In this document: piece by piece, positions 7,033 to 38,810 of the stretch
Layout of the letters: each line of letters begins with the position of its first letter
How positions within the stretch are numbered: position 1 is the first letter of the stretch
Source of the DNA: Candidatus Brockarchaeota archaeon
GTDB lineage: Archaea; Thermoproteota; EX4484-205; JAAOZP01
Length of the DNA stretch: 52,711 nucleotides
Reading direction: 5' to 3'
NCBI GenBank assembly: GCA_017601395.1
Contig: JAFNIQ010000006.1
Span: 1 to 52,711, forward strand
The notes under the pieces: model-generated
Told to the model about the DNA's origin: nothing
What the model saw: the letters and a program-made list of their open reading frames with translations, nothing else
The model's database searches: none
Translations under genes and position numbers: made by a program

Positions 7033-7964
7033 AGGCAACTCCGTCTTAGTGTACCTGTCTTCACCTCGCCCACGAACGTTATCCTATCCGGGATGGGTTT
7101 ATTTGAGTCGTCCGGCGGATTCATCAGGTCGAAGTAATAGCCCTTCTGATTACTTCCGGTCTCGTCGATGATGGTCTCTATATCTGACTTTTTCAGGACG
7201 CCTTGGGCTATCTGGGTGCCGAAGACTCCTTGGCATTCTTAGCAAGGAGCCTCCTTAGGTCGTGGTATGACTCCGCGTAGTCAAGCTCGCCATCTATCTT
7301 TCCCTCATCCCCTTCGAAGCGCATCTGCACGTTGTCTAGGATTAAGGAGAAGTGCTCCGCGGTATATTAGCCCCATTGCTGTAAGGTTGCCTAACGCAGT
7401 TGTCGCGTTGAATATCTCACCCCTCTGGCTGAGCACTTGAGCAGCCTTCATGTACAAGAGGGCAAAGGCTATGGCTGGCATGAGCTCCCCCGGAACCATC
7501 GCAACAGTGCTGAGCATCATCGTGTTCACCATTATCCTGGGGCTCCTCTCAACGAAGCCCAGGATGAAACCGCGCCACCATTGCAGGGAAAAACGGGAAC
7601 GGGAAGTTTAGAAGCTTGGGCATGAAGAGCTCAGCGACAAGCCTTTCACCCTTATGCAGCCTAACCCAGAAAGTCGTGTTTGAGAAGAGCAGGATGCTTA
7701 GCTCCATGCAAGAAACCTTCTCAGTTTTCAACAATGTGCTTTCAACACTGCGCTCTCCAAGGCTAGGCCGTAGAAAACCACGCCGGTTATCCTCCATGGT
7801 GAAGCTGGGGGCCTGACTGCAGCACCACTAGGGTAGAAGTCTGACCAAGCATAGTCGAAACTACCGTCGGCGTAGGAAAGCTCGAAAGGAGAAGCATGAG
7901 CCTTGAGAAGACCTAAGAGGGGGATTAACAGTAAGGCTAGAATAAGCCTGATAATTCTAACTAT
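7020..7964 (-). pseudogene. Decayed secreted or membrane protein gene(s), several frameshifts
   Basis: Read on the minus strand, this stretch holds protein-like pieces in different frames. First comes a signal peptide (IIRLILALLLIPLLGLL) followed by FELSYADGSFDYAWSDFYP. Next is a segment with NTTFWVRLHKGERLVAELFMPK. Then come a hydrophobic piece with IAFALLYMKAAQVLSQRG and the soluble pieces GELDYAESYHDLRRLL and VLKKSDIETIIDETG. Joining them needs at least three frameshifts. The signal peptide lacks a start codon: an ATA at 7962-7964 stands where the ATG should be, about 28 bases after a TATA-like TTATTTAAA. The pieces may come from one long gene or from two neighbouring ones. Function unknown. 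Confidence 0.7.
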
Positions 7965-26671: not shown

Positions 26672-27990
26672 TTAAGAGGCTTGACTATAATGGGAAAGGT
26701 AGGTGGACCTTGTCCCCGTACCAGAGGAACGGTACGAACTTCCTCCAAAGTTAAGCGTCCCGGTTACGGTTCCGTCTAACCTGCCCAGATATTTAAAGAC
26801 GACTTCAAGAAACCTGTCTGCAACTTCACTACTGTACTTCTTGAGGGCCTTAAGATAAGCGTCAACTATACCTCCTATCTTTAATCCAACTACTTTCGCA
26901 GCGTCTCCCTCTATCTCGAGCAAGACTTCGTCGGGGGTCCTCGTCTTCTCCATGTCCTTGTGTTCTCGCTTAGCCAGTTGTCTAAAGATTCTATGGCTTC
27001 ATCTCCATCCTTGATCCACATTGAGACTATGCTTCCCACAGCTTTTTCCTCCCTTCTCCTTCAACTCTCCCGGAGGATAGTGCTCCATGATCATGCTTAT
27101 CGCATCCAGCATCCTGCTGGAGCTTTCCCTGCTCGGGGCATTGTCTAAGACTTGCTTCGAGAGCTCCGAATATGCTTCTAGGACGCCTTCAACCTTAGGT
27201 GGGTCATCATTCATGTTTCCCACCATGTTTCCAGCAGTTTCCCTGAACTTGCTGCTGTACTTGTTTCCAAGCAGGAGGTCGGCAATTTTACTGAAGATTT
27301 TAGTCCCCTTCCTTTCTACCACGAGCGCCAGGGCATCCCATATCGCTGGGGTTATCCACCTGTAGACCCCGCCGCCGACAAGCCTAAGCACATGCTTCAT
27401 GCTGGGCGGCTTGCCGCCTACCCTCTCAGCCCTTATCTTACTGACCTTGTAGAGAAAGTGGTAACATAGGCTGCGCAGCTCGCTATTGCTCCAGCAACCC
27501 TCCCCGTTGCATACCCACCCTGTAATCCCTATCCCCTGTGGAAGGTGGTTCCTTTAGTCCAAATGGCTATCCTTATCTCGTCCCATGAGATATCTTGGGC
27601 TAGGTCTGAAAACACGTTAAGGAGAAGATTGTCATTAATATCCTTGGCTTCCGACCCGCACGTCTGGGCAAGCTTGAATAGCTCGTTGGCGTGCTGAGCC
27701 ATGCCGATTTCATTGAACTCCTTACCCATGCCTTCGCAAACGTCAGCGAGCTCGTTTAACGAGTCCATGGCGGCTAGTGCGTTATGAACGTCTATCCAGA
27801 CCTCAGCCATGTTCATCGCAACGCCGATGACAAGGATAGCCAGCGAGGCTGCTGCAGCCCACTTGGGTGGAAGCATGATGCCAACGATGACCATTATTCT
27901 GCAAGTCGCCACTATTCCCAATCCCTTTTAGGCGAAACCGTCCCAGAAGCCCCTCCAGAACCGCGGGAGCTTGCCGTTTCTAAAGCTCAC
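26672..27990 (-). pseudogene. Multiply disabled membrane protein gene
   Basis: On the minus strand a GTG at 27990 opens SFRNGKLPRFWRGFWDGFA and meets an in-frame TAA at codon 21. The same frame then reads on as a double membrane segment (CRIMVIVGIMLPPKWAAAAS, LAILVIGVAMNMAEVWID) and a helical region to a TAG at 27529-27531. Further pieces follow in other frames: MKHVLRLVGGGVYRWITPAI with NNAPSRESSS-like helices, SMWIKDGDEAIESLDNWLSE, and TRTPDEVLLEIEGDAAKVVG to the end. Two stops and at least three frameshifts separate parts that look like one protein of some 430 residues. Family not recognised. It follows the ATPase operon in the same direction. Confidence 0.7.
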
Positions 27991-28122: not shown

Positions 28123-28986
28123 TCATTCCTTCAGGATTTTCTTCTTAATCATCTCGGCGACTGGCGCTGGGCTGATATCCTTGTAGGGCTCTATGCCCGC
28201 CTCCGTGATCCTGACTAGACAGCAGGTCATGGATGGTTTTGAAAGCGATTTCTCCAGAATCACCGCCTTGACTTCCTCGCCCAGGCTTGTGGAAACCATC
28301 CTGAGGATGCTCTTGCTCATGTAAACGAGGTGCTGTCCCCCAATCACGTCGAACTCCCTGGCGCCGAAGCCAGCCTCCGGGTCTATAGAGAAACTCTTCT
28401 TATCAATGCTTTCCGCCATCTCCCTCCTAGACTTCTCTTGAAAACTCCTGGCGGCTTCACTCCTCCGCCAGCTCGTTATTAAGAGAAGCGTCTCGTAGCC
28501 CGTCGCCATTCCCACGAGAGTGTTAACTTCCAACGAGAGCTTGCCTTGAAGGATCCTTGCTGTGGAGGCCAGATGTTGAGTAGGCGTGTTCAAGAGCTGT
28601 GCGTGATAGTGGGGAACCAGTGAGTCGACGATGATAAGCACCGGGGTCCAGTCGTTCTTATCCACCTCTCTAGGTATTGTCTCGACTATCGCCTTGTGTT
28701 GCTCGAAGAGGCCACTAGCCTGGTACATCTTAATCCTGGACAGAGCATCCTCCCTAATGCCCCTCTTCAAGCATATTGTCTTCAGGCGGTCGGGGTCCCA
28801 TTCCTCTGTTTTTACAACTATTATCACATCCTTCTCTCTACAGCCCTTTAAAGCCTCAGCCACTAGGGTCAGAGAAATGGTGGTCTTACCGGTTCCAGGG
28901 CTCCCGTAGACCAGGTTTGAAACACCAGTTGGAAGGCCTCCGGTTAGCTCGTCCAGCGGCTTAATACCAGTGCTTAACTTCCTCAT
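28123..28986 (-). CDS. RecA/KaiC/RadB-type ATPase
   Basis: A 287-residue single-domain RecA-fold ATPase. It opens with LSTGIKPLDELTGGLPTGVS, the usual KaiC/RadA entry, followed by Walker A GSPGTGKTT at residues 28-36. The Walker B strand is VLIIVDSLVPHYHAQLL. The later FDVIGGQHLVYMSKSILRMV and a C-terminal VRITEAGIEP resemble RadB and archaeal KaiC-like proteins. It overlaps the HerA-like gene upstream by ATGA and is the only member of this three-gene operon with intact ATPase motifs. It may act on DNA or on the two partner proteins. Assignment as true RadB is not certain. Confidence 0.8.
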   Translation of the reverse strand: MRKLSTGIKPLDELTGGLPTGVSNLVYGSPGTGKTTISLTLVAEALKGCREKDVIIVVKTEEWDPDRLKTICLKRGIREDALSRIKMYQASGLFEQHKAIVETIPREVDKNDWTPVLIIVDSLVPHYHAQLLNTPTQHLASTARILQGKLSLEVNTLVGMATGYETLLLITSWRRSEAARSFQEKSRREMAESIDKKSFSIDPEAGFGAREFDVIGGQHLVYMSKSILRMVSTSLGEEVKAVILEKSLSKPSMTCCLVRITEAGIEPYKDISPAPVAEMIKKKILKE

Positions 28987-30212
28987 CCCGATCTGCCCTC
29001 CGCAAGAACCAAGAGTTGTCTCTCCCCTTCCTGAACCTGTCTTAGATAACCCTGCCTAATGAGTGCAGCAAGGGCCCTGAGGCCCTCCGCGCCCAACGAG
29101 GCCCTTACCTCTTCTATGAACTCGTTCAAGCTTGCTTTTCCACCCGACCCCTCCAGCTTCCCGATTATCTTAGATCCGGCCTCGTAGAACTCGCCAAGCC
29201 TCTCCCTCAACTCGTCATCAGAGCTTAAGACTTTCATGACCGGTTTACGGGCTTCCCTCTCCTTCTCGCTAAGGGGCTTAAGGAAAATGTTCACAGGAGC
29301 CTCTACGAAGCCATACTCCCCATTCTTAATGAGGATAAGCATGAAGTAGTTTGAAGCATCCCTCTCGGGCGTGCGCCCCATCCTCCATGGGTTAACGGCT
29401 TCAGAAGGAGGCGAGAAGACTACGGAGTCAAGGTTCTCCAAAACCCTTTCGGAGACCTGTGATAGGTTTTTCTCTGCTAATATTATCAAATAGCCTTTCC
29501 TCTCCAACTCTCCGGTTAAGGACTCTTCAACGAAGAGTTTAGCATTGTCAAGCCTCCTGTTTCTCGGCCATATCAAGCTTGGATAGCTTACGACTATGAG
29601 CGTCCTGCGTTTAGGCTCAAGCTGAGCGAGCTTCGCCAGCATCAAAAGCGTTGCGAAGACCTTGTGCGAAGCTATTGTAAACCCGGAGAGGTTGAAGACC
29701 ATCCCCGACTCCAAAACATCACTGAACTCCATTGCTTCTTTTCTGCCGAAGGCCCGCCTCAGGGTTCCGAAGGTGAATGGTTCGAAAGGCGTGTAAATCG
29801 ATAACCCGCCCTCCGGTGTCTCGAAGTCAAGCCTTGAAGCGATCTCAGTTATCGTGGTTTCCGAAAGCCTTAATACATCATCCAAGAGCGCTTTCGCCGC
29901 AATGGCCTTCACGTTGAAAGTTCCAAAGCAATAGTCAAGTATCTCCACAACCGATTCGATGTATTGCTCAACCTTTTCACGGTTCGGAGGTTTAATTGGA
30001 TTTAAACCATATTTGACGACATCATAGTATCTCGTCTTACCCATCCTTGCCACGCAGCTAAACTCATCATTTAAATCGAGCAGGATTACATTCGCATCCT
30101 TAAACACGTCTTGAAGCAGGTATACGAGAGCAGCTTTGAAGTTACTCCCGGCTACGCCTATCCTCACAGATGCCTCCAGCAACCCTAGGCTCTGCTCAGG
30201 CACAACCCTCAT
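28983..30212 (-). CDS. HerA/VirB4-like protein with degenerate ATPase motifs and C-terminal winged helix
   Basis: The order of segments recalls HerA-type P-loop ATPases, but key motifs are altered. The phosphate loop position reads IGVAGSNFKAALVYLL, with no GK[ST]. The next strand VILLDLNDEFS matches the HerA LDxxGE-like strand, GMVFNLSGFTIASHKVFATL recalls the Walker B-side helix, and the Walker B strand itself reads TLIVVSYPSLIWP without Asp-Glu. GYLIILAEKNLSQVSERVLENLDSVVF, here given in part as GYLIILAEKNLSQVS, matches the HerA sensor region. The last 90 residues form a probable winged helix (KASLNEFIEEVRASLGAEGL, ALIRQGYL). The enzyme is probably inactive and structural. It overlaps both neighbours by ATGA. 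Confidence 0.6.
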   Translation of the reverse strand: MRVVPEQSLGLLEASVRIGVAGSNFKAALVYLLQDVFKDANVILLDLNDEFSCVARMGKTRYYDVVKYGLNPIKPPNREKVEQYIESVVEILDYCFGTFNVKAIAAKALLDDVLRLSETTITEIASRLDFETPEGGLSIYTPFEPFTFGTLRRAFGRKEAMEFSDVLESGMVFNLSGFTIASHKVFATLLMLAKLAQLEPKRRTLIVVSYPSLIWPRNRRLDNAKLFVEESLTGELERKGYLIILAEKNLSQVSERVLENLDSVVFSPPSEAVNPWRMGRTPERDASNYFMLILIKNGEYGFVEAPVNIFLKPLSEKEREARKPVMKVLSSDDELRERLGEFYEAGSKIIGKLEGSGGKASLNEFIEEVRASLGAEGLRALAALIRQGYLRQVQEGERQLLVLAEGRSG

Positions 30213-31573
30213 TTCAGCACCCTCACCCCCTGTTGGGAGATCAGGACAGTCCTCCGCTCAAGTGCAAACCCCCTGGACGGTAGGAGCGACTCGACCAGCT
30301 CCTTTTTGCAGTGCATTAGGATGATGTTGTCCGCTTCAAAGCCCGAGCGTATCCATGGTTTTTCCAGCGTCAGTATCTCAATTGGGGCCTTCACGTCTAG
30401 GTTTCCAGCAAGGCCTCTAAACCAGATAGCGGCTAGGGGTTTAGCTAGGGTTTTCTTAAGCAAGGCTTCATCAGAGGGCCCGTTGGCGAAGACCACTTCC
30501 ATCCCACCGTGGTGCCTATAAGTCTTAACTGGTTTCTTACGCAGCCTGTTCTTGCTAGGCTTGAAACCCCTCTCAACAAGCTTCTTTTTCATCTCACCCT
30601 CGGTATCCTCAGATATCCCCTTAACGTCGACTACGATAGCCATCGAGTTCCTCCTCAACTGCGAGAGACATAGCTGGAGGGCAAGATCCTCCGCATCCCT
30701 TCTCTCACCAACTATTAGTAGCCTCCCTGCCAGTCGACTAGGGTTTAGATCGATTAGCCAGGGGACCGGCATTACGTAGGGCTTCAGGGAGAGCCACTCT
30801 TCCAAAGCTTGCCGTAAACACTGCCCAGAGCCCTGTCCTGCTTCCTTCAGGTTCTTCTTGAACTCCTCCAGGGCCTGGGGATTATCTGAAGCAACTTCAA
30901 CCTTCATTAATTGCCTGCTAGGTTTAGCCTCGCAGAGTATAGCGGTATTGCCTGTCGCGCTCTTTCCGACAGCTTCTACGAAAGAAGACAGGCTCCCCTT
31001 GAGCTTAAGCGTCTGACGATGCTCAAAGGACTCCATGAAGGCATCTTCAGGGAGCTTCCAATGGAACCTTGCCTTCCCCCTTAAGACTTTCAGCAAACCT
31101 CCTAGGTCAAACCCGTGAAGGAAAGCAACTTTAGGAACCGGTGCAAGCGACAGGAGAATCGTGTGGTCTTCAGGTTGGACGGCCTCTTCCTCGCATACTA
31201 TCCTTAGCTCACTAAGCCTAATCCTAGCATTCAGGGATTTGCGAGTAACGAAGACAACGCAGAGGGATGCTGCTATGAATCCTATTTGAGTATAGTGCTT
31301 GATGCGGAAGAAAGCTAAGAAGAGTGCTGACATCAACCAGATTAGCAGGAAGGAGAATACCCCTTTAAAGATCCTTCTCACGTTTTCCTTAAAGTACTTT
31401 CTCGGAAATAACAGGGACATGGTCAAGAACGCCATCACCACCATAGAGATCAGGCTCGTCAGGCCTCCTAGGTCTAAGCCGAGGGAGTACCCGATGGAAT
31501 CTAAAAGCCTCTTAACCAAGCTTCCCGACAGAAGTACTGCAGCGAGCTTCAGGACAGTCTTAATGATGCCCAT
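30209..31573 (-). CDS. Membrane-anchored HerA-like protein, ATPase motifs degenerate
   Basis: The N-terminal 130 residues hold about four transmembrane helices (TVLKLAAVLLSGSLVKRL, LTSLISMVVMAFLTMSLLF, GVFSFLLIWLMSALFLAFF, QIGFIAASLCVVFVT). The cytoplasmic part has a mixed domain and then VPWLIDLNPSRLAGRLLIVG, which is where HerA/VirB4 proteins reach Walker A, but the next residues are ERRDAEDLALQLCL, so nucleotide binding is unlikely. AIVVDVKG matches the following strand, and the C-terminus TLEKPWIRSGFEADNIILMH resembles a HerA end. It is first in the operon, behind a minus-strand TATA-like CTATAAAAATA near 31605-31615. It could anchor the complex at the membrane, as VirB4/CedB-type proteins do in DNA transfer. 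Confidence 0.55.
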   Translation of the reverse strand: MGIIKTVLKLAAVLLSGSLVKRLLDSIGYSLGLDLGGLTSLISMVVMAFLTMSLLFPRKYFKENVRRIFKGVFSFLLIWLMSALFLAFFRIKHYTQIGFIAASLCVVFVTRKSLNARIRLSELRIVCEEEAVQPEDHTILLSLAPVPKVAFLHGFDLGGLLKVLRGKARFHWKLPEDAFMESFEHRQTLKLKGSLSSFVEAVGKSATGNTAILCEAKPSRQLMKVEVASDNPQALEEFKKNLKEAGQGSGQCLRQALEEWLSLKPYVMPVPWLIDLNPSRLAGRLLIVGERRDAEDLALQLCLSQLRRNSMAIVVDVKGISEDTEGEMKKKLVERGFKPSKNRLRKKPVKTYRHHGGMEVVFANGPSDEALLKKTLAKPLAAIWFRGLAGNLDVKAPIEILTLEKPWIRSGFEADNIILMHCKKELVESLLPSRGFALERRTVLISQQGVRVLK

Positions 31574-31796: not shown

Positions 31797-31841
31797 GTAA
31801 GCAGGTAAACATTCGTTTACCTCAGGTAAACATCTGCTTAC
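31797..31841. promoter_or_regulatory. Compound operator with nested inverted and direct repeats
   Basis: An outer inverted repeat GTAAGCAG...CTGCTTAC (31797-31804 with 31834-31841) encloses an inner GGTAAAC-ATTC-GTTTACC (31804-31810 with 31815-31821) and a third GGTAAAC copy (31825-31831). CAGGTAAACAT is a direct repeat. The site lies about 70 bases before the ArsR-like gene, so autoregulation is likely. Confidence 0.6.
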
Positions 31842-31911
31842 CATGTTTTGGCCATTCACACCATCAAGGTTTCAAACCCTTGATGTCTTTCTCCTAAATC
31901 CTTAAAAGGTA

Positions 31912-32466
31912 TTGGACGCTTTTTTAAAGACGTTGCCAAACGAAGGCAAGAAACCGGAACTGGAGCCGGAGAAACTCAACATGATAAAGGCTGCAGCTGA
32001 GCCTCACAGGATGAGAATATTGGTAAAACTGCTAGAGAAAGAGGACACTATTACATCGCTATCCAAATCCCTCAGTTATTCCAAACAGCTCTTAATCCAC
32101 CACCTTGAGGTTCTCGAGAAGAACGGGCTCGTCTCGAAGAGAAGGGTTGAGAACGCTGAGGTCTATAGTATTAGTGAAGCCGCCAAGACTATAGTCTCGG
32201 AGGTCTTGAAAATACATTCAAGAATCGGAGAGGCTGAGGGCCCTGAGGCGGGTGCTGAGAGACGCATGGTTACTCCGCCGGCTCTGAGAAGGCCAGCATC
32301 CCCTCTGAAACTCATACCCTTGATCATTGGAATATCCGTAGCGTTCTTCGCATCCGCCAGAGGGATCCTGGAAGGACAACCCCTGTGGATCCTCAGCGGA
32401 ACCTTGGTCGGCATCTGCCTCTACGCGATCGCTTCAAAGCTAATCCGGTATGCACTAGCCTCATAG
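31912..32466 (+). CDS. Membrane-tethered ArsR-type transcription regulator
   Basis: The N-terminal 90 residues form a winged helix of ArsR type: MIKAAAEPHRMRILVKLLEK, SLSKSLSYSKQLLIHHLEVL (recognition helix) and GLVSKRRVENAEVYSI (wing). A Glu/Ala linker and two transmembrane helices follow (LKLIPLIIGISVAFFASARG and LWILSGTLVGICLYAIAS). The protein is thus a DNA-binding domain held at the membrane. It starts with TTG after AAAGGT. It is divergent from the HerA-like/RecA-like operon and has a compound operator just upstream, so it probably controls itself and perhaps that operon. Confidence 0.75.
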   Translation: MDAFLKTLPNEGKKPELEPEKLNMIKAAAEPHRMRILVKLLEKEDTITSLSKSLSYSKQLLIHHLEVLEKNGLVSKRRVENAEVYSISEAAKTIVSEVLKIHSRIGEAEGPEAGAERRMVTPPALRRPASPLKLIPLIIGISVAFFASARGILEGQPLWILSGTLVGICLYAIASKLIRYALAS

Positions 32467-32617: not shown

Positions 32618-34087
32618 ATGCGTCTACTTGAGCAGAAGAATCTGGAGAAGATAGGCATAGTGGCCAGTGATTCGAGTGAAACCAGGGCTAAGCTCCTCCT
32701 AGAGGAGGAGAAGGAGCTTAAGGTTAGGGCTGAGGAGATCATTGTTATCGACACGCCTATGGGGGAGGTTCTTGGTGTTCTTAGAAGCGGCAGCGGGGTT
32801 AACGAGGCTCTCAGGGCAAACGCTTACAGGCCGAGCGTTGCTTACGCTAAGAGGGGAGGAGTTCCCTCAGGAGCCAGGGAGATATATACTTTCGAAATAA
32901 TGGTGATAGGTGTTTTGACTGAGAACGGGGTTGAGCAGAACCGCATGATAATACCTCCTAGAAGCAACGTCTACATGTTTAAGCCAGGCGTCTCCAATCC
33001 CCTTGAACACGTTGCGAGAAATAAGCCGGTTGTCTGGAACGCTTGTCTCGAGGGCCATGAGGATTGGCGAATACCTTTCGACAGCTCCTTCCTACCGTAC
33101 CATATCGGCGTGTTCGGCGCAACGGGAAGCGGAAAGTCTTGGCTGACAAGGTTTGTCCTGGTCCCAGTCCTCCTGGAGTCAGGCTTCAAGGTTCTGGTTC
33201 TAGACTGGAGCGGCGAAGATTATGCTCCGTATTACAAAGATAAGGCGGTTCCCATATCCTACCTTAAGCTAGACGAGGAGGCGATAGTGAGATACATTCT
33301 GGAGAAGGCTGAGCACTTCGGCTACACTGGCCAGGCTAGAGATTCCAACCCCGTAAGGGAGGCTCTGGAGGACTATGTTTCGAGAAGATGGGAGGAGATA
33401 AGTCGGAAATCGTCTGAGGAAATGTTCCTAGACATGAAGAACCATTTGGAAAACAGTGTTAGACAGTCTTCGACAAGAGAGGATTTTAAGAGGGCTGCTC
33501 TACGCCGGCTGGAGTACGGTTTCAAGAAGCTTAGGCCGATCGACCTGGAGGCCGTCAGGGGCTCGTTAAGCATCGAGGAGCTAGTGGAGGATTTGAGGAG
33601 GGAGGAGAAGGGTCTTAGAGTTGTTGACATGAGCCTGGTTGGGAGTGACGAGAAGCTCTCCTTCTTCAACTCTCTCGCAAGGTTTCTCGAGGAGGGGATG
33701 GAGCTGGGGGAGTCGCTTGGGGTCGCGCTGGTGATAGATGAAGGACCGCAGTACGCCCCATGGGAGCCCAAGGGAATACAGTACGAGTCCACTGAGCACA
33801 TTAAGAACCTCTGCGCCCTCGGGAGGAAACACAGGCTTTGCATCGTCTTAATATCGCAGGGGATAGCTGGAGACATAGGCATAAACGCTGCCGTAAGAAG
33901 GAATCTTAACACGCAGTTCTTCGGAGCCCTTCACCCGCTTGACATGCAGGAGGCTGACAACTGGCTTAAGCCCTACGGGATTCAGAGGGAGTATCTTCTT
34001 TCACTGAAGCCGGGCCAGTTCTACTTCGTGGGGAAGGCGAATCCCTCGCCGATACCTCTCCTCATATCTTTCAAGCCAGGGAAATGA
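32618..34087 (+). CDS. herA: HerA-type bipolar DNA helicase
   Basis: A 489-residue hexameric ATPase of the HerA/FtsK group that normally works with NurA nuclease and Mre11-Rad50 in end resection. The N-terminal HAS-barrel region spans about residues 1-150. Walker A GATGSGKS is at 167-174 in IGVFGATGSGKSWLTRF, and the next strand VLVLDWSGED is typical of HerA. Walker B is GVALVIDEGPQYAPWE, and the arginine-finger region is AVRRNLNTQFFGAL. Start ATG follows TTTTTAAAC about 30 bases upstream. No nurA, mre11 or rad50 is adjacent, which is unusual. It may serve with the degenerate HerA-like operon on the other strand instead. Confidence 0.88.
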   Translation: MRLLEQKNLEKIGIVASDSSETRAKLLLEEEKELKVRAEEIIVIDTPMGEVLGVLRSGSGVNEALRANAYRPSVAYAKRGGVPSGAREIYTFEIMVIGVLTENGVEQNRMIIPPRSNVYMFKPGVSNPLEHVARNKPVVWNACLEGHEDWRIPFDSSFLPYHIGVFGATGSGKSWLTRFVLVPVLLESGFKVLVLDWSGEDYAPYYKDKAVPISYLKLDEEAIVRYILEKAEHFGYTGQARDSNPVREALEDYVSRRWEEISRKSSEEMFLDMKNHLENSVRQSSTREDFKRAALRRLEYGFKKLRPIDLEAVRGSLSIEELVEDLRREEKGLRVVDMSLVGSDEKLSFFNSLARFLEEGMELGESLGVALVIDEGPQYAPWEPKGIQYESTEHIKNLCALGRKHRLCIVLISQGIAGDIGINAAVRRNLNTQFFGALHPLDMQEADNWLKPYGIQREYLLSLKPGQFYFVGKANPSPIPLLISFKPGK

Positions 34088-34100
34088 TGTCGATCTGACT

Positions 34101-34253
34101 TTGTCAAGATCAGGGGCAGTGAAGAACGACTTTATCTTACCAGGGGATTTCTCAAGTATTGTTCGAGTTCTGCTTGGAACGTGGACGATTATCCATCTAA
34201 TACCTTCTGAAAAAACTCTTGCGAAGTACGGGATAAAGAGAAAGAGAGTATAG
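34101..34253 (+). CDS. Possible small protein after herA
   Basis: A 50-codon frame (TTG at 34101 or GTG at 34119) reads KNDFILPGDFSSIVRVLLGT and ends KYGIKRKRV. Residue use looks protein-like, and the frame starts 13 bases after the herA stop. A competing frame on the other strand covers the same bases, so only one can be real. I prefer this strand for its composition, with low confidence. Confidence 0.3.
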   Translation: MSRSGAVKNDFILPGDFSSIVRVLLGTWTIIHLIPSEKTLAKYGIKRKRV

Positions 34254-34274
34254 AACAATCTTTAAATTCTTCTA

Positions 34275-37200
34275 TTACAGATTAGTCAGACGGTTCAGCT
34301 TCTTGCTAATCGCTCTGTCAAAACTTTTCCTCTGCTTAAACTCCTCCTGCTTACCCAAGTTCCACTGGTCTATAGGTCTTAGATACCCGACAACTCTCGA
34401 GTAGACCTCCGTGGCCCTCCCGCACTTCGGACACGTGGGCTGCTCCCCGCTGAGATACCCGTCCTCTGGGCAAATGCTGAACGTTGGTGTGAGCGTGAAG
34501 TAGGGTAGCTTGAAGTTTTCACAAACCTTCTTAACAAGTGTTGCAACCGACTCAACCGGCGGGTTGCTCTCGCCCAGCCATACGTGTACAACCGTACCGC
34601 CCGTATACCTTGTTTGAAGAGGATCCTGAAGCCTAAGGTAATCCCAGAGATCGTCAGTATAGTAGACGGGCAGGTGGGTTGAATTCGTGTAGTATGGTGC
34701 AGCACCCTTCTCAACCTGCTCCTCGTTCGCAACTATTATACTGGGATGGGTTTTCTTATCAATCCTCGCAAGCCTGTGAGAAGTACCCTCGGCAGGAGTA
34801 GCCTCGAGGTTGAATATGTTGCCCGTTTCCTCCTGAAAATCCTGCAGCCTCTTCCGCATGAAGTCTAAAACTTTAATAGAGAAGCCGAGGCCCTTAGGAT
34901 CACCGATAGTGCATCCTAGGAAGTTTAAGCAGGCCTCGTTCATGCCGATTAAACCGATAGTGCTAAAATGGTTCTTCCAGTAGTAGCCGAAAGCCTCTTT
35001 TATATGTCTCAAATAGAATCTGGAATACGGGTATAAACCTGCCTCAGTAAACTTTTCAAGCCATTTCCTCTTAATCTCAAGCACATCTTTCGCTAGAACC
35101 ATCGTCCTGTCAAGCCTGGCGAAGAACTCGCCCTCGCTCTTCGACAAAAAGCCTATCCTAGGCATGTTTATCGTGACAACGCCTATCGACCCGGTTAACG
35201 GGTTTGCCCCGAAGAGGCCTCCACCCCTCTTTTTTAACTCCCTCTTGTCGAGCCTCAGATGGCAGCACATTGAGCGAACATCCTCAGGATTCATGTCGGA
35301 GTTGATGAAGTTCGCGAAATATGGGATACCGTACTTCGCAGAAGTCTCTAGGACCTTCCTAACCGTTTCATCATCCCAGTTGAAATCCCTAGTTATGTTT
35401 ATCGTTGGAATGGGAAAAGTGAAAACTCTTCCTACAGCGTCTCCCTCGAGCATTACTTCAGCCAAAGCCCTGTTGAAAATATCGACCTCTTCTTGAAAAT
35501 CTCCATAAGTAGCATCCATTGTTTCCCCTCCTATTATAACCGGCTCGTCTTCCATGAAGCTTGGAACCTTAAGGTCGAGCGTCACATTCGAGAAAGGCGT
35601 GTTGTGGAAGACCAAGAGTCCAGCTCCTCCAACAAAGTTTTCCTGGGGCAGATCAACTGAAATATCGTATTCGTATTCCCTCTCGTAGTTGAATTTTTCA
35701 ACCCCTAGGCAAACCCTAGCCTCGAAGTCGTTAACGGAGTATGTTTTCTTCGGTGTCGAATTTTCTTTGAAGATTCGAATTATGAATCTATCTCGCCATT
35801 TTTCATTATTCCTACTGGTTTTTTCAGTGTAAACGGCGAATCTAAATTTGTTTTGGCTTAAAAGCAGACACAGTCCTGCACATAGTTTTCTAGAAGTAGT
35901 TGAATAATCCCAATACTTTTGATATTCTGCCCCATCGCCTTTCAAGACTGTTTCAATGAAGACCCTCTGATATTTTGGAGAAAGATCAAAGATAAACCAT
36001 GGGACTACTTTATTGAAAGACAAATAGCCGCAGGTTCTACTAACGATTTCAGCTAAAAGACCTTTTCCAGTTATCTTTAGAACTGTCTTAATCTTTCCTC
36101 CATTCCTAGAATACCCTTTGTTGCGGGCTACTTGACCCAAGGCGTTTAAAGCCTTTAAGAGCTTGAGGATCTCCCTAGCGTTTCCGGAAGGCGATTGGGA
36201 AATATAGAGCGGGGTAGAAATGGCTGTACGACCTTCGGAAACATACCATGCGCAAAGTTTTACGAAGTTCTCTAACAGTTTCCCTTTTAGAAATCTGGGA
36301 TACCATACGTCACTGTTCTTGAGCCTAAATTCGGCTTTCACGTTAAGCTCCCCGTATTTCCTCCAGATATCGTATCTAATCGATCCACTCTCTAACCAAC
36401 TTTCCCACACACCCCTGTCCTTAAGCCCAAACTCCTTGTAGAATGGGATAAGGCTCTGCTCCTCTAAAATGGCCTTTTGTTTGATTTTTCTCAATGTATG
36501 CGTTGGGTTTATCTTAACGAAAACGTTTTTTTGAAGACCGGGAAGATCATCTATGATCTCAACCAAGTCTATTTCCTCTTTCTCACCCTGATTGTCTAAG
36601 GACCTTAATGCGATGAAGTGGTTTTCCTCGTTTAAATGACAGTAATCATCAGCTATCTTAACATCCTCAGCTGACTTTGGCACTGGATTAAACTTACCGT
36701 TGAATTTTGAGAAGGCGAAGAGAGAATGGGCTTTTGAAACTTTCGCCTCGCCACGATTAGTTCTAATTCTTACGAACTCCGAGTTCTTAGGAACTCTATG
36801 TCTTATGAATGCCTTAACCCTGGTCCAAACAGCCTTCCCATCGGTATTGAAGGATAAAACTTGGTAATCATCATGATTCTCTAAGGCATAGCTCTGGGGT
36901 TTTTGCTCAATCACCTTGTGATGATATTTCTCAAATTCACGGTCAACTAGCTTACCGATCTCCATGATTTTAATCTTCCCCTTTTCCTTTATAACTATCG
37001 GCTCATCCCAGCATAAGCTTTGAAAGCCAACCCTAGTGGGTATATTCATGTTGAACATGAATTCTTGAAGCACTTGCTTAACCGACTTGTAGTCAAGGCT
37101 ATCATACCTTATGAACGGGGCCAAGTAAGTGTCGAAGTTTGAGAAGGCTTGGGCGCCAGCAGCCTCTCCTTGCAGTGTGAAGATGAAGTTGACGACGTGG

Positions 37201-38810
37201 CCAAGAGCAACTCGGAAATGCCTTGCCGGCTTGGCTGAGACCTTTCCCCTAACACCCTTGAAGCCGGTAGTTAACAAGTCCTTTAGATCCCACCCTACGC
37301 AATTGCCGGATACGACGACTTTACCGTTTCTTTCCACAACCAAAGTCCCGTTGGGCACGGTTAAATCGTAAACTTTCCCTCGATACCGAATCAACTTAGG
37401 GCGTTTGTTAAAGACTGGGGTAAGTTGCTCCGTCTGCACCGAAACTATAAATCTCTCGCCATCCCATCTGATCGTACCGTTTTTCCCGATTTTTAAAAGA
37501 CATTCCAATACGTCTTCAGCAAGCTTTTTCGATTTAGTGGAGAACCTCCTTAATTCCCCATTTTCTATAGTCCCGTCTACCTTAAAAAGGGCGAAGAGAA
37601 ATACCTTAATTTTTTCCGGGTCTAAATCCTTGATAAACTGAGGAACAAACTTTTCACTCGATTTTCCAAACTGTTTTAAATACGAGTATAGTTCCTTTGA
37701 GCAGAACTGAATATGATCCTTATCGCTCAGGTTTGGAGAAAATCCCAGTTTCCTGATCAGAGAAGCGATTTCCTTTCTGTTTTTCTCATTTCTTTGGCCT
37801 ATAGAGATTATGTGGTGGAGTGAATTCCTGTCTTTCCTATTATTCCTCCAAGCATTCCCTTCTGCCAGATACCATCCCATGAACTTGAGAAAAATCTCAA
37901 TCGGGATTTTCCCCAAATGTCTAAGTCTATTTCCACCCTTTACCATAGGGATTTGGAAGAATTTTGAGTTTTTCCCTTTCCATTTCACCTGTTTAAGGAA
38001 TTCCGATCCTATCTTAAAATTGGTCGGGTTTACGAACTTCCATTTCTTATCACGTCTTTCTCTGACCAATAACCTATGCTCAGGCGTTACCCTGAGGCTT
38101 AACGACCTGCTCTCAAAGCAAAATAGAGGACCGGAATATTCGAATACCTGCTTGTCTGTGGGATGTTGATATTCTAAGTGGCCAGTCTTCAGGTTAACTG
38201 TAGCAACCTCATCTTGGAGTGTTACATCCTTGAAGAACTTAAAGCCCTTTTTTGTTAAAACTCTAGTTTGATCATCGAAGCAGTACGGGCCAAGTACCCC
38301 GAGATTGTGAATGTGGAAATCCCCGTTTAAATGCGCCTCCCTTATTTCAGTCCTACCCTTGTTGAAAATCCTGTGAAGCCAGTATTGTGAGATGACTTGA
38401 GACGATATGTGGAAGTTTAAAGCCTGCAGCGAGTATGTTGTGTTAGCGTTCTCCTTCACCAGCCAGCTCTTGTTCTCAAGATAGCTGTCAACGAACTCCC
38501 TTATCTGAGCGTGAAGCGCCCTGTAAAGAATATATGCTTTAGCGACATTGTAAAGATTGTTCTCAACAAGCACTTTCTCAACCAGGTCTTGAACCTGCTC
38601 AACGTGAGGAATCTCGCCGGGCTTCAGCTGCCTCTCTAAGCGTTCAACAACCTGGTTTGAAAGCATCTCGGCGAGGCTCCTGTCCTTGCCGCCGACGGAC
38701 TTTATTGCTTTCCATATTGCCTCAGTAATCTTGCTCTTGTCGAAATCTACTATTCTACCATCTCTCTTAATTATCCTGCTTATAGTTTGTTTCGAATCCG
38801 TCTGTTGCAA
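34275..38810 (-). CDS. nrdD: Anaerobic ribonucleoside-triphosphate reductase with two inteins
   Basis: This oxygen-sensitive glycyl-radical enzyme reduces ribonucleotides for DNA synthesis. The precursor is 1511 residues; removing inteins at 177-503 and 598-1070 leaves 711, normal for NrdD. The ATP-cone regulatory domain is at the N-terminus (ISRIIKRDGRIVDFDKSKIT). Catalytic cysteines are in the spliced GPY-CVGWDL and in RSMCCHLRLD. A zinc site (CPEDGY, CPKCG) and the glycyl-radical segment YSRVVGYLRP lie near the C-terminus. The start is TTG after AGGGTTAGGG, behind a leader of about 120 bases. No activase gene nrdG is in the window. The enzyme signals an anaerobic life. Confidence 0.95.
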   Translation of the reverse strand: MQQTDSKQTISRIIKRDGRIVDFDKSKITEAIWKAIKSVGGKDRSLAEMLSNQVVERLERQLKPGEIPHVEQVQDLVEKVLVENNLYNVAKAYILYRALHAQIREFVDSYLENKSWLVKENANTTYSLQALNFHISSQVISQYWLHRIFNKGRTEIREAHLNGDFHIHNLGVLGPYCFDDQTRVLTKKGFKFFKDVTLQDEVATVNLKTGHLEYQHPTDKQVFEYSGPLFCFESRSLSLRVTPEHRLLVRERRDKKWKFVNPTNFKIGSEFLKQVKWKGKNSKFFQIPMVKGGNRLRHLGKIPIEIFLKFMGWYLAEGNAWRNNRKDRNSLHHIISIGQRNEKNRKEIASLIRKLGFSPNLSDKDHIQFCSKELYSYLKQFGKSSEKFVPQFIKDLDPEKIKVFLFALFKVDGTIENGELRRFSTKSKKLAEDVLECLLKIGKNGTIRWDGERFIVSVQTEQLTPVFNKRPKLIRYRGKVYDLTVPNGTLVVERNGKVVVSGNCVGWDLKDLLTTGFKGVRGKVSAKPARHFRVALGHVVNFIFTLQGEAAGAQAFSNFDTYLAPFIRYDSLDYKSVKQVLQEFMFNMNIPTRVGFQSLCWDEPIVIKEKGKIKIMEIGKLVDREFEKYHHKVIEQKPQSYALENHDDYQVLSFNTDGKAVWTRVKAFIRHRVPKNSEFVRIRTNRGEAKVSKAHSLFAFSKFNGKFNPVPKSAEDVKIADDYCHLNEENHFIALRSLDNQGEKEEIDLVEIIDDLPGLQKNVFVKINPTHTLRKIKQKAILEEQSLIPFYKEFGLKDRGVWESWLESGSIRYDIWRKYGELNVKAEFRLKNSDVWYPRFLKGKLLENFVKLCAWYVSEGRTAISTPLYISQSPSGNAREILKLLKALNALGQVARNKGYSRNGGKIKTVLKITGKGLLAEIVSRTCGYLSFNKVVPWFIFDLSPKYQRVFIETVLKGDGAEYQKYWDYSTTSRKLCAGLCLLLSQNKFRFAVYTEKTSRNNEKWRDRFIIRIFKENSTPKKTYSVNDFEARVCLGVEKFNYEREYEYDISVDLPQENFVGGAGLLVFHNTPFSNVTLDLKVPSFMEDEPVIIGGETMDATYGDFQEEVDIFNRALAEVMLEGDAVGRVFTFPIPTINITRDFNWDDETVRKVLETSAKYGIPYFANFINSDMNPEDVRSMCCHLRLDKRELKKRGGGLFGANPLTGSIGVVTINMPRIGFLSKSEGEFFARLDRTMVLAKDVLEIKRKWLEKFTEAGLYPYSRFYLRHIKEAFGYYWKNHFSTIGLIGMNEACLNFLGCTIGDPKGLGFSIKVLDFMRKRLQDFQEETGNIFNLEATPAEGTSHRLARIDKKTHPSIIVANEEQVEKGAAPYYTNSTHLPVYYTDDLWDYLRLQDPLQTRYTGGTVVHVWLGESNPPVESVATLVKKVCENFKLPYFTLTPTFSICPEDGYLSGEQPTCPKCGRATEVYSRVVGYLRPIDQWNLGKQEEFKQRKSFDRAISKKLNRLTNL
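35601..37019 (-). other. Intein 2 of NrdD (473 residues, LAGLIDADG endonuclease type)
   Basis: Begins with Ser (SLCWDEPIVIKEKGKIK) and ends VFHN, with Thr as the first residue of the following host segment. Excision restores GFQ-TPFSNVTLDL, the conserved NrdD sequence. Splicing block B is near EAKVSKAHSLF. The two LAGLIDADG helices are FVKLCAWYVSEG (about intein residue 252) and VFIETVLKGDGA (about 353), both with acidic residues, so homing activity may persist. A start at the nearby Cys would leave two extra residues in the host protein and is less likely. Confidence 0.9.
37302..38282 (-). other. Intein 1 of NrdD (327 residues, LAGLIDADG type)
   Basis: Begins with Cys (CFDDQTRVLTKKGFKFF) and ends VVVSGN before a host Cys. 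Splicing gives GPY-CVGWDLKDLL, so the insertion lies at an active-site cysteine. Block B is RVTPEHRLLV. LAGLIDADG helices are FLKFMGWYLAEG (about 132) and FLFALFKVDGTI (about 228). The residue before the final Asn is Gly instead of the usual His, which occurs in some working inteins but can slow cleavage. Confidence 0.9.

What the first reader, a model, noticed from the sequence alone, without database searches (positions are those of the whole stretch)
28123..31573. Operon of one intact RecA-like ATPase with two HerA-fold proteins lacking catalytic motifs
Three genes joined by ATGA overlaps encode a membrane-anchored HerA-like protein (P-loop position GERRDAED), a second HerA-like protein with a winged helix (GVAGSNFKAA and IVVSYP instead of Walker A and B), and a RecA/KaiC-like ATPase with intact GSPGTGKTT. 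Two probably dead P-loop subunits around one live ATPase, one anchored in the membrane, suggest a DNA-handling or DNA-transfer machine rather than ordinary repair. An intact herA and a membrane-tethered regulator lie divergently beside it. I know of no described system with this composition.
Basis: partly seen in the sequence, partly recalled or inferred. Interest (0 to 1): 0.8.

Follow-up and report, generated by a model that had tools for sequence, protein, structure and literature searches.

The report
Membrane pseudo-translocase with RadB-like ATPase
A conserved three-gene operon in hot-spring archaea pairs a membrane protein and a DNA-pump protein that has lost its ATP-using motifs with one fully intact RadB-like recombination ATPase, which suggests an undescribed membrane-bound DNA-handling complex.

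Summary
The operon is real. Genes A (membrane, 454 aa), B (409 aa) and C (287 aa) overlap by ATGA, and all three are under purifying selection. The genome is Ca. Brockarchaeota. A-B-C occurs in all 8 genomes of the genus, in 2 of a second family, and in part (A', B', C fragment) in a third.

B is a HerA/CedD-type domain: its AlphaFold model matches HerA and VirB4, and its profile matches intact CedD at 9e-17. Every homologue lacks Walker A. C is intact but is a Rad51-superfamily, RadB-like protein rather than KaiC. A is membrane-anchored, but its claimed HerA fold could not be shown. In family f4 the gene in A's position carries an intact HerA domain.

Outside Brockarchaeota, two genomes of family f31 encode C (35% identical) beside a membrane HerA-fold protein that also lacks Walker A. 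So the pairing of pseudo-HerA with RadB-like ATPase is an old association.

The neighbouring intact herA is the ordinary HerA of a HerA-NurA locus and is not part of the system. Intact CedD-like genes lie elsewhere in the same genomes. Best reading: a membrane-tethered DNA scaffold made from a demoted translocase, switched by the RadB-like ATPase. Function is inferred.

The parts
30209..31573 (-). Gene A: membrane protein, 454 aa, three or four N-terminal membrane helices plus a cytoplasmic alpha/beta region; segment LLIVGERRDAED at a possible former P-loop
   Evidence: ORF; hydropathy; conserved in 8/8 genus genomes, a 355-aa counterpart in two more; HerA fold not shown
28983..30212 (-). Gene B: HerA/CedD-type pseudo-ATPase with a C-terminal winged-helix-like module, 409 aa; Walker A replaced by GVAGSNFKAA, Walker B by IVVSYP
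   Evidence: AlphaFold2 model and Foldseek; profile match to CedD E 9e-17; alignment of 10 homologues
28123..28986 (-). Gene C: RadB-like Rad51-superfamily ATPase, 287 aa, intact Walker A and B
   Evidence: NCBIfam RadB 75.5 bits; PDB RadB 2cvf; tree; slowest-evolving gene of the three
31912..32466 (+). Divergent HTH_5 (ArsR-type) regulator with two C-terminal membrane helices; likely regulator of the operon
   Evidence: Pfam HTH_5; hydropathy; near the operon in all 8 genus genomes; a protein of the same architecture heads the f31 operon
31802..31842 (.). Operator-like array: two GGTAAAC-N4-GTTTACC-type palindromes 21 bp apart between A and the regulator
   Evidence: 2 matches against 0.01 expected; conserved in sister species, one 21-bp unit missing in G005
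32618..34087 (+). Ordinary intact HerA (neighbour, NOT part of the system); followed by nurA in sister genomes
   Evidence: Pfam DUF87 65 bits; NurA neighbour; absent from the operon neighbourhood in G001, G002, G007, G008, G011

Best explanation
A-B-C is a membrane-tethered DNA-handling complex in which a Ced/VirB4-type DNA translocase has been demoted to a scaffold. (1) A anchors the complex in the cytoplasmic membrane (membrane helices predicted by hydropathy only). (2) B keeps the HerA/CedD fold and a DNA-binding type winged helix but cannot bind or hydrolyse ATP in the usual way (motif loss shown, inactivity inferred). It probably still forms a ring or clamp on DNA or a docking platform (inferred). 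(3) C, a RadB-like ATPase, is the only nucleotide-using subunit (motifs shown). It docks on B and acts as an ATP switch that delivers or organises a recombinase such as RadA on DNA held at the membrane, as RadB does for RadA in Haloferax (inferred by family). (4) The divergent membrane-bound HTH protein probably controls the operon through the GGTAAAC palindromes (inferred). Probability that A, B and C work as one complex: about 0.8. Probability of this particular mechanism: about 0.4.
For: A-B-C is conserved as an overlapping operon in 10 genomes of two families despite only 20-22% identity of A and B between them. B lacks Walker A in every homologue, including G010. f31 pairs C with a membrane HerA-fold protein (profile E 3.7e-7) that also lacks the P-loop. 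C has the RadA/RadB catalytic motifs and a lysine/arginine-rich loop where RadA has its DNA-binding L2. Selection is strongest on C. RadA-type proteins with HhH domains and an intact CedD-like gene are present elsewhere in the genome, so A-B-C replaces neither. A distant C homologue in G054 sits beside ParB-like and Hel308-like genes. RadB as recombination mediator: PMC5480776.
Against: No interaction, DNA-binding or ATPase data. A's fold is unknown. Loss of Walker motifs does not prove that B cannot bind a nucleotide. The f31 protein keeps a Walker-B-like VIDEL, so it may not be fully dead. C falls well short of the RadB equivalog score (75.5 against 172.4 bits), so transfer of mediator function is an extrapolation. 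No nuclease, polymerase or other repair gene is consistently linked.
Confidence: 0.42

Rival explanations
1. DNA-transfer machine: A-B-C is a Ced-like importer or exporter in which C powers or gates DNA passage and A/B form the membrane ATPase ring.
For: B and G010's B' match CedD; in G010 the gene in A's place is a membrane protein with an intact HerA domain (GGKSSGKT); CedB and CedD of Sulfolobales are HerA-type membrane ATPases essential for DNA import (PMC11868833).
Against: No channel (CedA/VirB6) or pilin (CedA1/VirB2) gene recognised among the neighbours; an intact CedD-like gene exists elsewhere in 11 of 12 class genomes, and where examined lies with an AAA secretion ATPase, TadC-like membrane proteins and a short pilin-like ORF. 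In the genus and in f2 no intact translocase motor remains in the operon, and RadB-type ATPases are not known translocases.
Confidence: 0.2
2. Membrane signalling switch: C acts like a KaiC-family nucleotide sensor, A/B form a membrane receptor platform, and the HTH-membrane regulator is the output. DNA is not processed.
For: Two membrane-bound partners, an HTH regulator with two membrane helices near the operon in 8/8 genus genomes and heading the f31 operon; f31 adds two small membrane proteins, one with a single N-terminal membrane helix and a long outer part.
Against: C groups with RadB/RadA-type proteins and apart from KaiC; B keeps a DNA-translocase fold and a winged-helix-like end.
Confidence: 0.2
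3. Secretion or control apparatus for the large secreted D-E toxin-like proteins found immediately downstream in some genomes.
For: D and E directly follow C in G003 and G006, with D or E remnants at the same place in G000, G004 and G005.
Against: Several to about fifteen other E loci per genome in G000, G003 and G004 lie elsewhere without A-B-C; A-B-C occurs without any E in G001, G002, G008 and G011.
Confidence: 0.05
4. Decaying relic of a translocase operon, without function.
For: Graded motif loss from G010 to f2 and the genus.
Against: dN/dS well below 1 for all three genes and no internal stops in ten genomes; the operon is kept across families.
Confidence: 0.04

Closest known systems
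CedD/CedB of the Crenarchaeal DNA-import (Ced) system (PMC11868833, PMC9905601)
   Same: HerA/VirB4 fold; membrane helices plus ATPase domain (as in G010 A' and the f31 protein); B' of G010 is hit by the NCBIfam CedD model
   Different: Window B lacks Walker A and B and has no membrane helix; coupled to a RadB-like gene; no CedA, CedA1 or CedA2 recognised; an intact CedD-like gene is separate in the same genome
RadB, archaeal recombination mediator (PMC5480776)
   Same: Single RecA-core domain without the HhH N-terminal domain; intact Walker motifs; best curated family match
   Different: 75.5 bits against a cut-off of 172.4; own clade in the tree; encoded with membrane and pseudo-HerA partners; RadB itself is reported absent from crenarchaea
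HerA-NurA end-resection complex
   Same: HerA fold of B; an intact HerA gene lies nearby in five genomes
   Different: B has no ATPase motifs and no nuclease partner
KaiC-like archaeal ATPases
   Same: RecA-superfamily core, Pfam KaiC hit to the P-loop region
   Different: Rad51-type motifs and tree position

Membership tests
HerA/CedD (FtsK-HerA superfamily), gene B | HerA/VirB4 ATPase-domain fold | tested here: met
   Foldseek HerA 4d2i 1.1e-7, VirB4 8rtd 1.5e-7, probability 1.00
HerA/CedD (FtsK-HerA superfamily), gene B | Sequence-profile homology to intact members | tested here: met
   hhalign to 28 CedD-like proteins, probability 98.8, E 9e-17; no Pfam or NCBIfam hit for window B alone
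HerA/CedD (FtsK-HerA superfamily), gene B | Walker A GxxxxGK[ST] and Walker B DE/EE | tested here: not met
   GSNFKAA and VVSYP in the aligned columns, with a 3-residue P-loop gap
HerA/CedD, gene A | HerA/VirB4 fold | tested here: inconclusive
   Model pLDDT 54, no Foldseek hit below 1e-3, profile E 0.12 against decoy 0.19
RadB, gene C | NCBIfam RadB equivalog score of at least 172.4 bits | tested here: not met
   75.5 bits, best of all families
RadB, gene C | Core-only RecA fold with intact Walker A and B and Rad51-type motifs | tested here: met
   Alignment of 13 homologues, PDB profile hits to RadB/RadA, tree
RadB, gene C | Stimulates RadA filament formation | not testable with these tools
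   RadA-type genes with HhH domains are present in the genome
Ced/Ted DNA-import system | CedA/VirB6 channel and CedA1/VirB2 pilin in the locus | tested here: not met
   ORF survey of neighbourhoods shows none recognised; divergent small membrane proteins could be missed
Ced/Ted DNA-import system | Active HerA/VirB4 ATPase encoded with the system | tested here: not met
   None in the window operon; only G010 A' is intact
Known anti-phage HerA systems | Match to PADLOC HerA or partner models | tested here: not met
   No hit for B; only weak P-loop hits for C

The most novel reading that the evidence does not exclude
A previously undescribed class of membrane-bound DNA-processing machine, present in at least two separate archaeal lineages, in which a HerA/VirB4-type pump has been turned into an ATP-independent scaffold and energy use has passed to a dedicated RadB-like subfamily, coupling recombination to the cell membrane.
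Probability: 0.3. Interest if true: 0.8.

Novelty: new variant of a known kind. Interest (0 to 1): 0.5.

Why it matters
Pseudo-ATPases that take over a motor's place in a complex are known in other ATPase families, but I found no report of one in the HerA/VirB4 superfamily tied to a recombinase-like ATPase. The series in related genomes (intact HerA domain in A's position in G010, degenerate or lost in the others) offers a way to follow the conversion of a DNA pump into a scaffold. If the complex brings a RadB-like ATPase to the membrane, it would make the question of how archaea couple DNA uptake or repair to the membrane directly testable.

Tried and rejected
Viral/plasmid origin: no relatives of B or C in IMG/VR, and no hit of B to PHROGs. 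Known defence system: PADLOC gave nothing for B. KaiC identity for C: rejected by NCBIfam, PDB and tree. Intact herA as a component: rejected by neighbourhoods. A as HerA fold: AlphaFold2, Foldseek and profile comparison all failed to show it, so it was left open. Homology of A to G010's A' could not be shown by sequence; it rests on position and on the membrane-plus-cytoplasmic layout. The same holds for the 355-aa A of family f2. Full-length relatives of G010's A' were not found in 200 phylum genomes. Rfam: nothing in the window. The palindromes between A and the regulator are not found in the more distant half of the genus. The KaiC survey (Makarova 2017) is not held, so its gene families could not be compared. 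The whole genome was not available as a file.
Full report
WHAT IS THERE. The window holds three overlapping minus-strand genes: A (30209-31573), B (28983-30212) and C (28123-28986), joined by ATGA overlaps. Pfam sees only C (KaiC/Rad51 clan) and nothing significant in A or B. Divergent to A lie an HTH_5 regulator with two membrane helices (31912-32466) and an intact HerA (32618-34087; DUF87, 65 bits). Contig titles of the nearest relatives identify the organism as Candidatus Brockarchaeota.

CONSERVATION. B and A are found in all eight genomes of the genus (50-92% and 36-89% identity). An operon of the same layout (A 355 aa, B 403 aa, C 284 aa) is present in two genomes of a second family, f2. 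A third family, f4 (G010), has a 670-aa membrane protein with an intact HerA domain (VVGGKSSGKTRF...VVDPHGEY) in A's position, overlapping a degenerate B'. A C fragment starts another contig, so an A'-B'-C' operon is likely but split by the assembly. One genome of the class (G009) has no detectable B. Outside the class, B gave nothing convincing in the sampled genomes of the phylum; its one weak extra hit, 47 residues in G193, is not counted. Pairwise dN/dS is 0.20-0.34 for A, 0.07-0.31 for B, 0.03-0.10 for C and 0.04-0.07 for HerA, so all are maintained genes and C is the most constrained of the three.

WHAT B IS. The AlphaFold2 model of B (mean pLDDT 77) is closest to Sulfolobus HerA and to R388 VirB4 in the PDB, E about 1e-7, probability 1.00. 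A profile of B plus B' aligns with 28 intact CedD-like proteins at E 9e-17. In that alignment GVA---GSNFKAA occupies the P-loop and VVSYPSLIWP the Walker-B strand. No B homologue has a Walker A lysine-serine/threonine (G010). The C-terminal 80 residues form helices followed by a beta hairpin, as in winged helices.

WHAT A IS. A has at least three hydropathy-predicted membrane helices, and the model shows four N-terminal helices. Its cytoplasmic part is not reliably modelled (pLDDT 54) and has no structural match below 1e-3. Profile comparison with CedD puts A's LLIVGERRDAED on the P-loop, but at E 0.12 against 0.19 for a decoy. The intact HerA domain of the G010 protein in the same position makes it plausible.

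WHAT C IS. C is a single RecA core whose best curated family is RadB (75.5 bits, below the 172.4 cut-off), ahead of RadA and KaiC. In the PDB its best single-core match is RadB 2cvf, followed by RadA. In a tree, C homologues form one clade near short RadB-like proteins, apart from RadA and KaiC. In the phylum the full-length family is discrete: 13 of 398 genomes at E of about 1e-107 or better, with the next match at 3e-25 (the 13 sequences were in the profile). With the earlier profile of Brockarchaeota sequences alone, the three outside genomes already stood out at 3e-59, 2e-58 and 4e-40, against 4e-19 for the next. Invariant features include EQHK, YH after Walker B, and IGG..L.Y..K. RadA-type genes with HhH domains are present elsewhere in the window's genome.

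A SECOND LINEAGE. Two genomes of another family, f31, carry: an HTH protein with two membrane helices; a 693-aa membrane protein; C (35-36% identical to window C); and two small membrane proteins. The 693-aa protein aligns over its HerA domain with CedD at E 3.7e-7, has GSYG---LNIM where CedD has GSTGSGKST, but keeps IVIDEL at Walker B. No other genome of 398 matched it. Its direct similarity to B is weak (E 0.0066), so common origin and parallel loss are both possible. A more distant C homologue (G054) sits beside ParB-like and Hel308-like genes with no HerA-type neighbour.

NEIGHBOURS. The intact HerA is followed by nurA in sister genomes and is absent from the neighbourhood in the other half of the genus and in f2, so it is not a component. 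In the window it borders the ribonucleotide reductase gene instead, which fits an inversion relative to G004 and G005. The HTH-membrane regulator is near the operon in all eight genus genomes. Between it and A lie two GGTAAAC-N4-GTTTACC-type palindromes 21 bp apart, conserved in sister species, 0.01 expected by chance. They were not found in the more distant half of the genus.

MECHANISM. What is shown: a conserved operon, a membrane protein, a CedD/HerA-fold protein without ATPase motifs, and an intact RadB-like ATPase under strong selection. What is inferred: that they form one complex, that B is inactive, that B still contacts DNA, and that C acts as an ATP switch or recombination mediator at the membrane. 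RadB in Haloferax acts as a mediator for RadA (PMC5480776), and CedB/CedD are needed for DNA import in Sulfolobales (PMC11868833). The transfer model is less likely, because no channel or pilin was recognised and an intact CedD-like gene exists elsewhere in 11 of 12 class genomes.

COMPARISON AND NOVELTY. B fails the catalytic definition of HerA/CedD, and C fails the score definition of RadB, so neither is filed as a member. I found no report of this composition in the open-access library, but subscription papers, including the main survey of archaeal KaiC-like proteins, were not available. I rate it a new variant of a known kind.

SIDE FINDING. Downstream of C in G003 and G006 lie D (about 380 aa) and E (about 1,600 aa). 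E has a roughly 1,100-aa conserved part, 74% identical between the two genomes, and an unrelated roughly 500-aa end. The family recurs at many loci per genome, most of those examined with D upstream and several with a 217-240 aa gene downstream, an arrangement like polymorphic toxin systems. The window keeps a broken E remnant at 27110-27984. This deserves its own study.

Noticed in passing
window 27110-27984 (-); L032:10038-16678; L033:1925-7914; L166-L173: Multi-copy D-E family in Brockarchaeota: E is 1,200-1,700 aa with a conserved ~1,100-aa part and unrelated C-terminal ends, several carrying PD-(D/E)xK-like motifs (EVK, IEVK, IEAK), usually preceded by D and often followed by a ~220-240 aa gene, as in polymorphic toxin-immunity loci; the window holds a broken remnant.
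   Followed up: partly
L032:16705-16800: Displaced piece resembling the C-terminal end of E from another species, downstream of E in G006, like the orphan tips of polymorphic toxin loci.
   Followed up: no
window 32618-38810: HerA borders the ribonucleotide reductase gene here but nurA in sister genomes, which fits an inversion that parted HerA from NurA.
   Followed up: partly
window 34275-38810 (-): Ribonucleotide reductase ORF of 1,511 aa that appears to carry intein-like insertions; sister copies are 1,576 and over 2,190 aa.
   Followed up: no
L041:4708-9958 (G002); G000:C134: Intact CedD-like gene (207 bits) beside an AAA secretion ATPase, TadC-like membrane proteins and a 62-aa pilin-like ORF: a likely Ced/pilus-type locus in Brockarchaeota.
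   Followed up: partly
L093 (G005:C29) around 7036-7686: Broken fragments of A and C at a second place in G005, apparently a decayed second copy of the operon.
   Followed up: no
L142:9227-11330 (G054): Distant C homologue next to a ParB-like gene (ParB_N, 46 bits) and a Hel308-like helicase, without HerA.
   Followed up: no
window 7755-7895 (-): Short D-like remnant (47% identity), another trace of the D-E family in this window.
   Followed up: no
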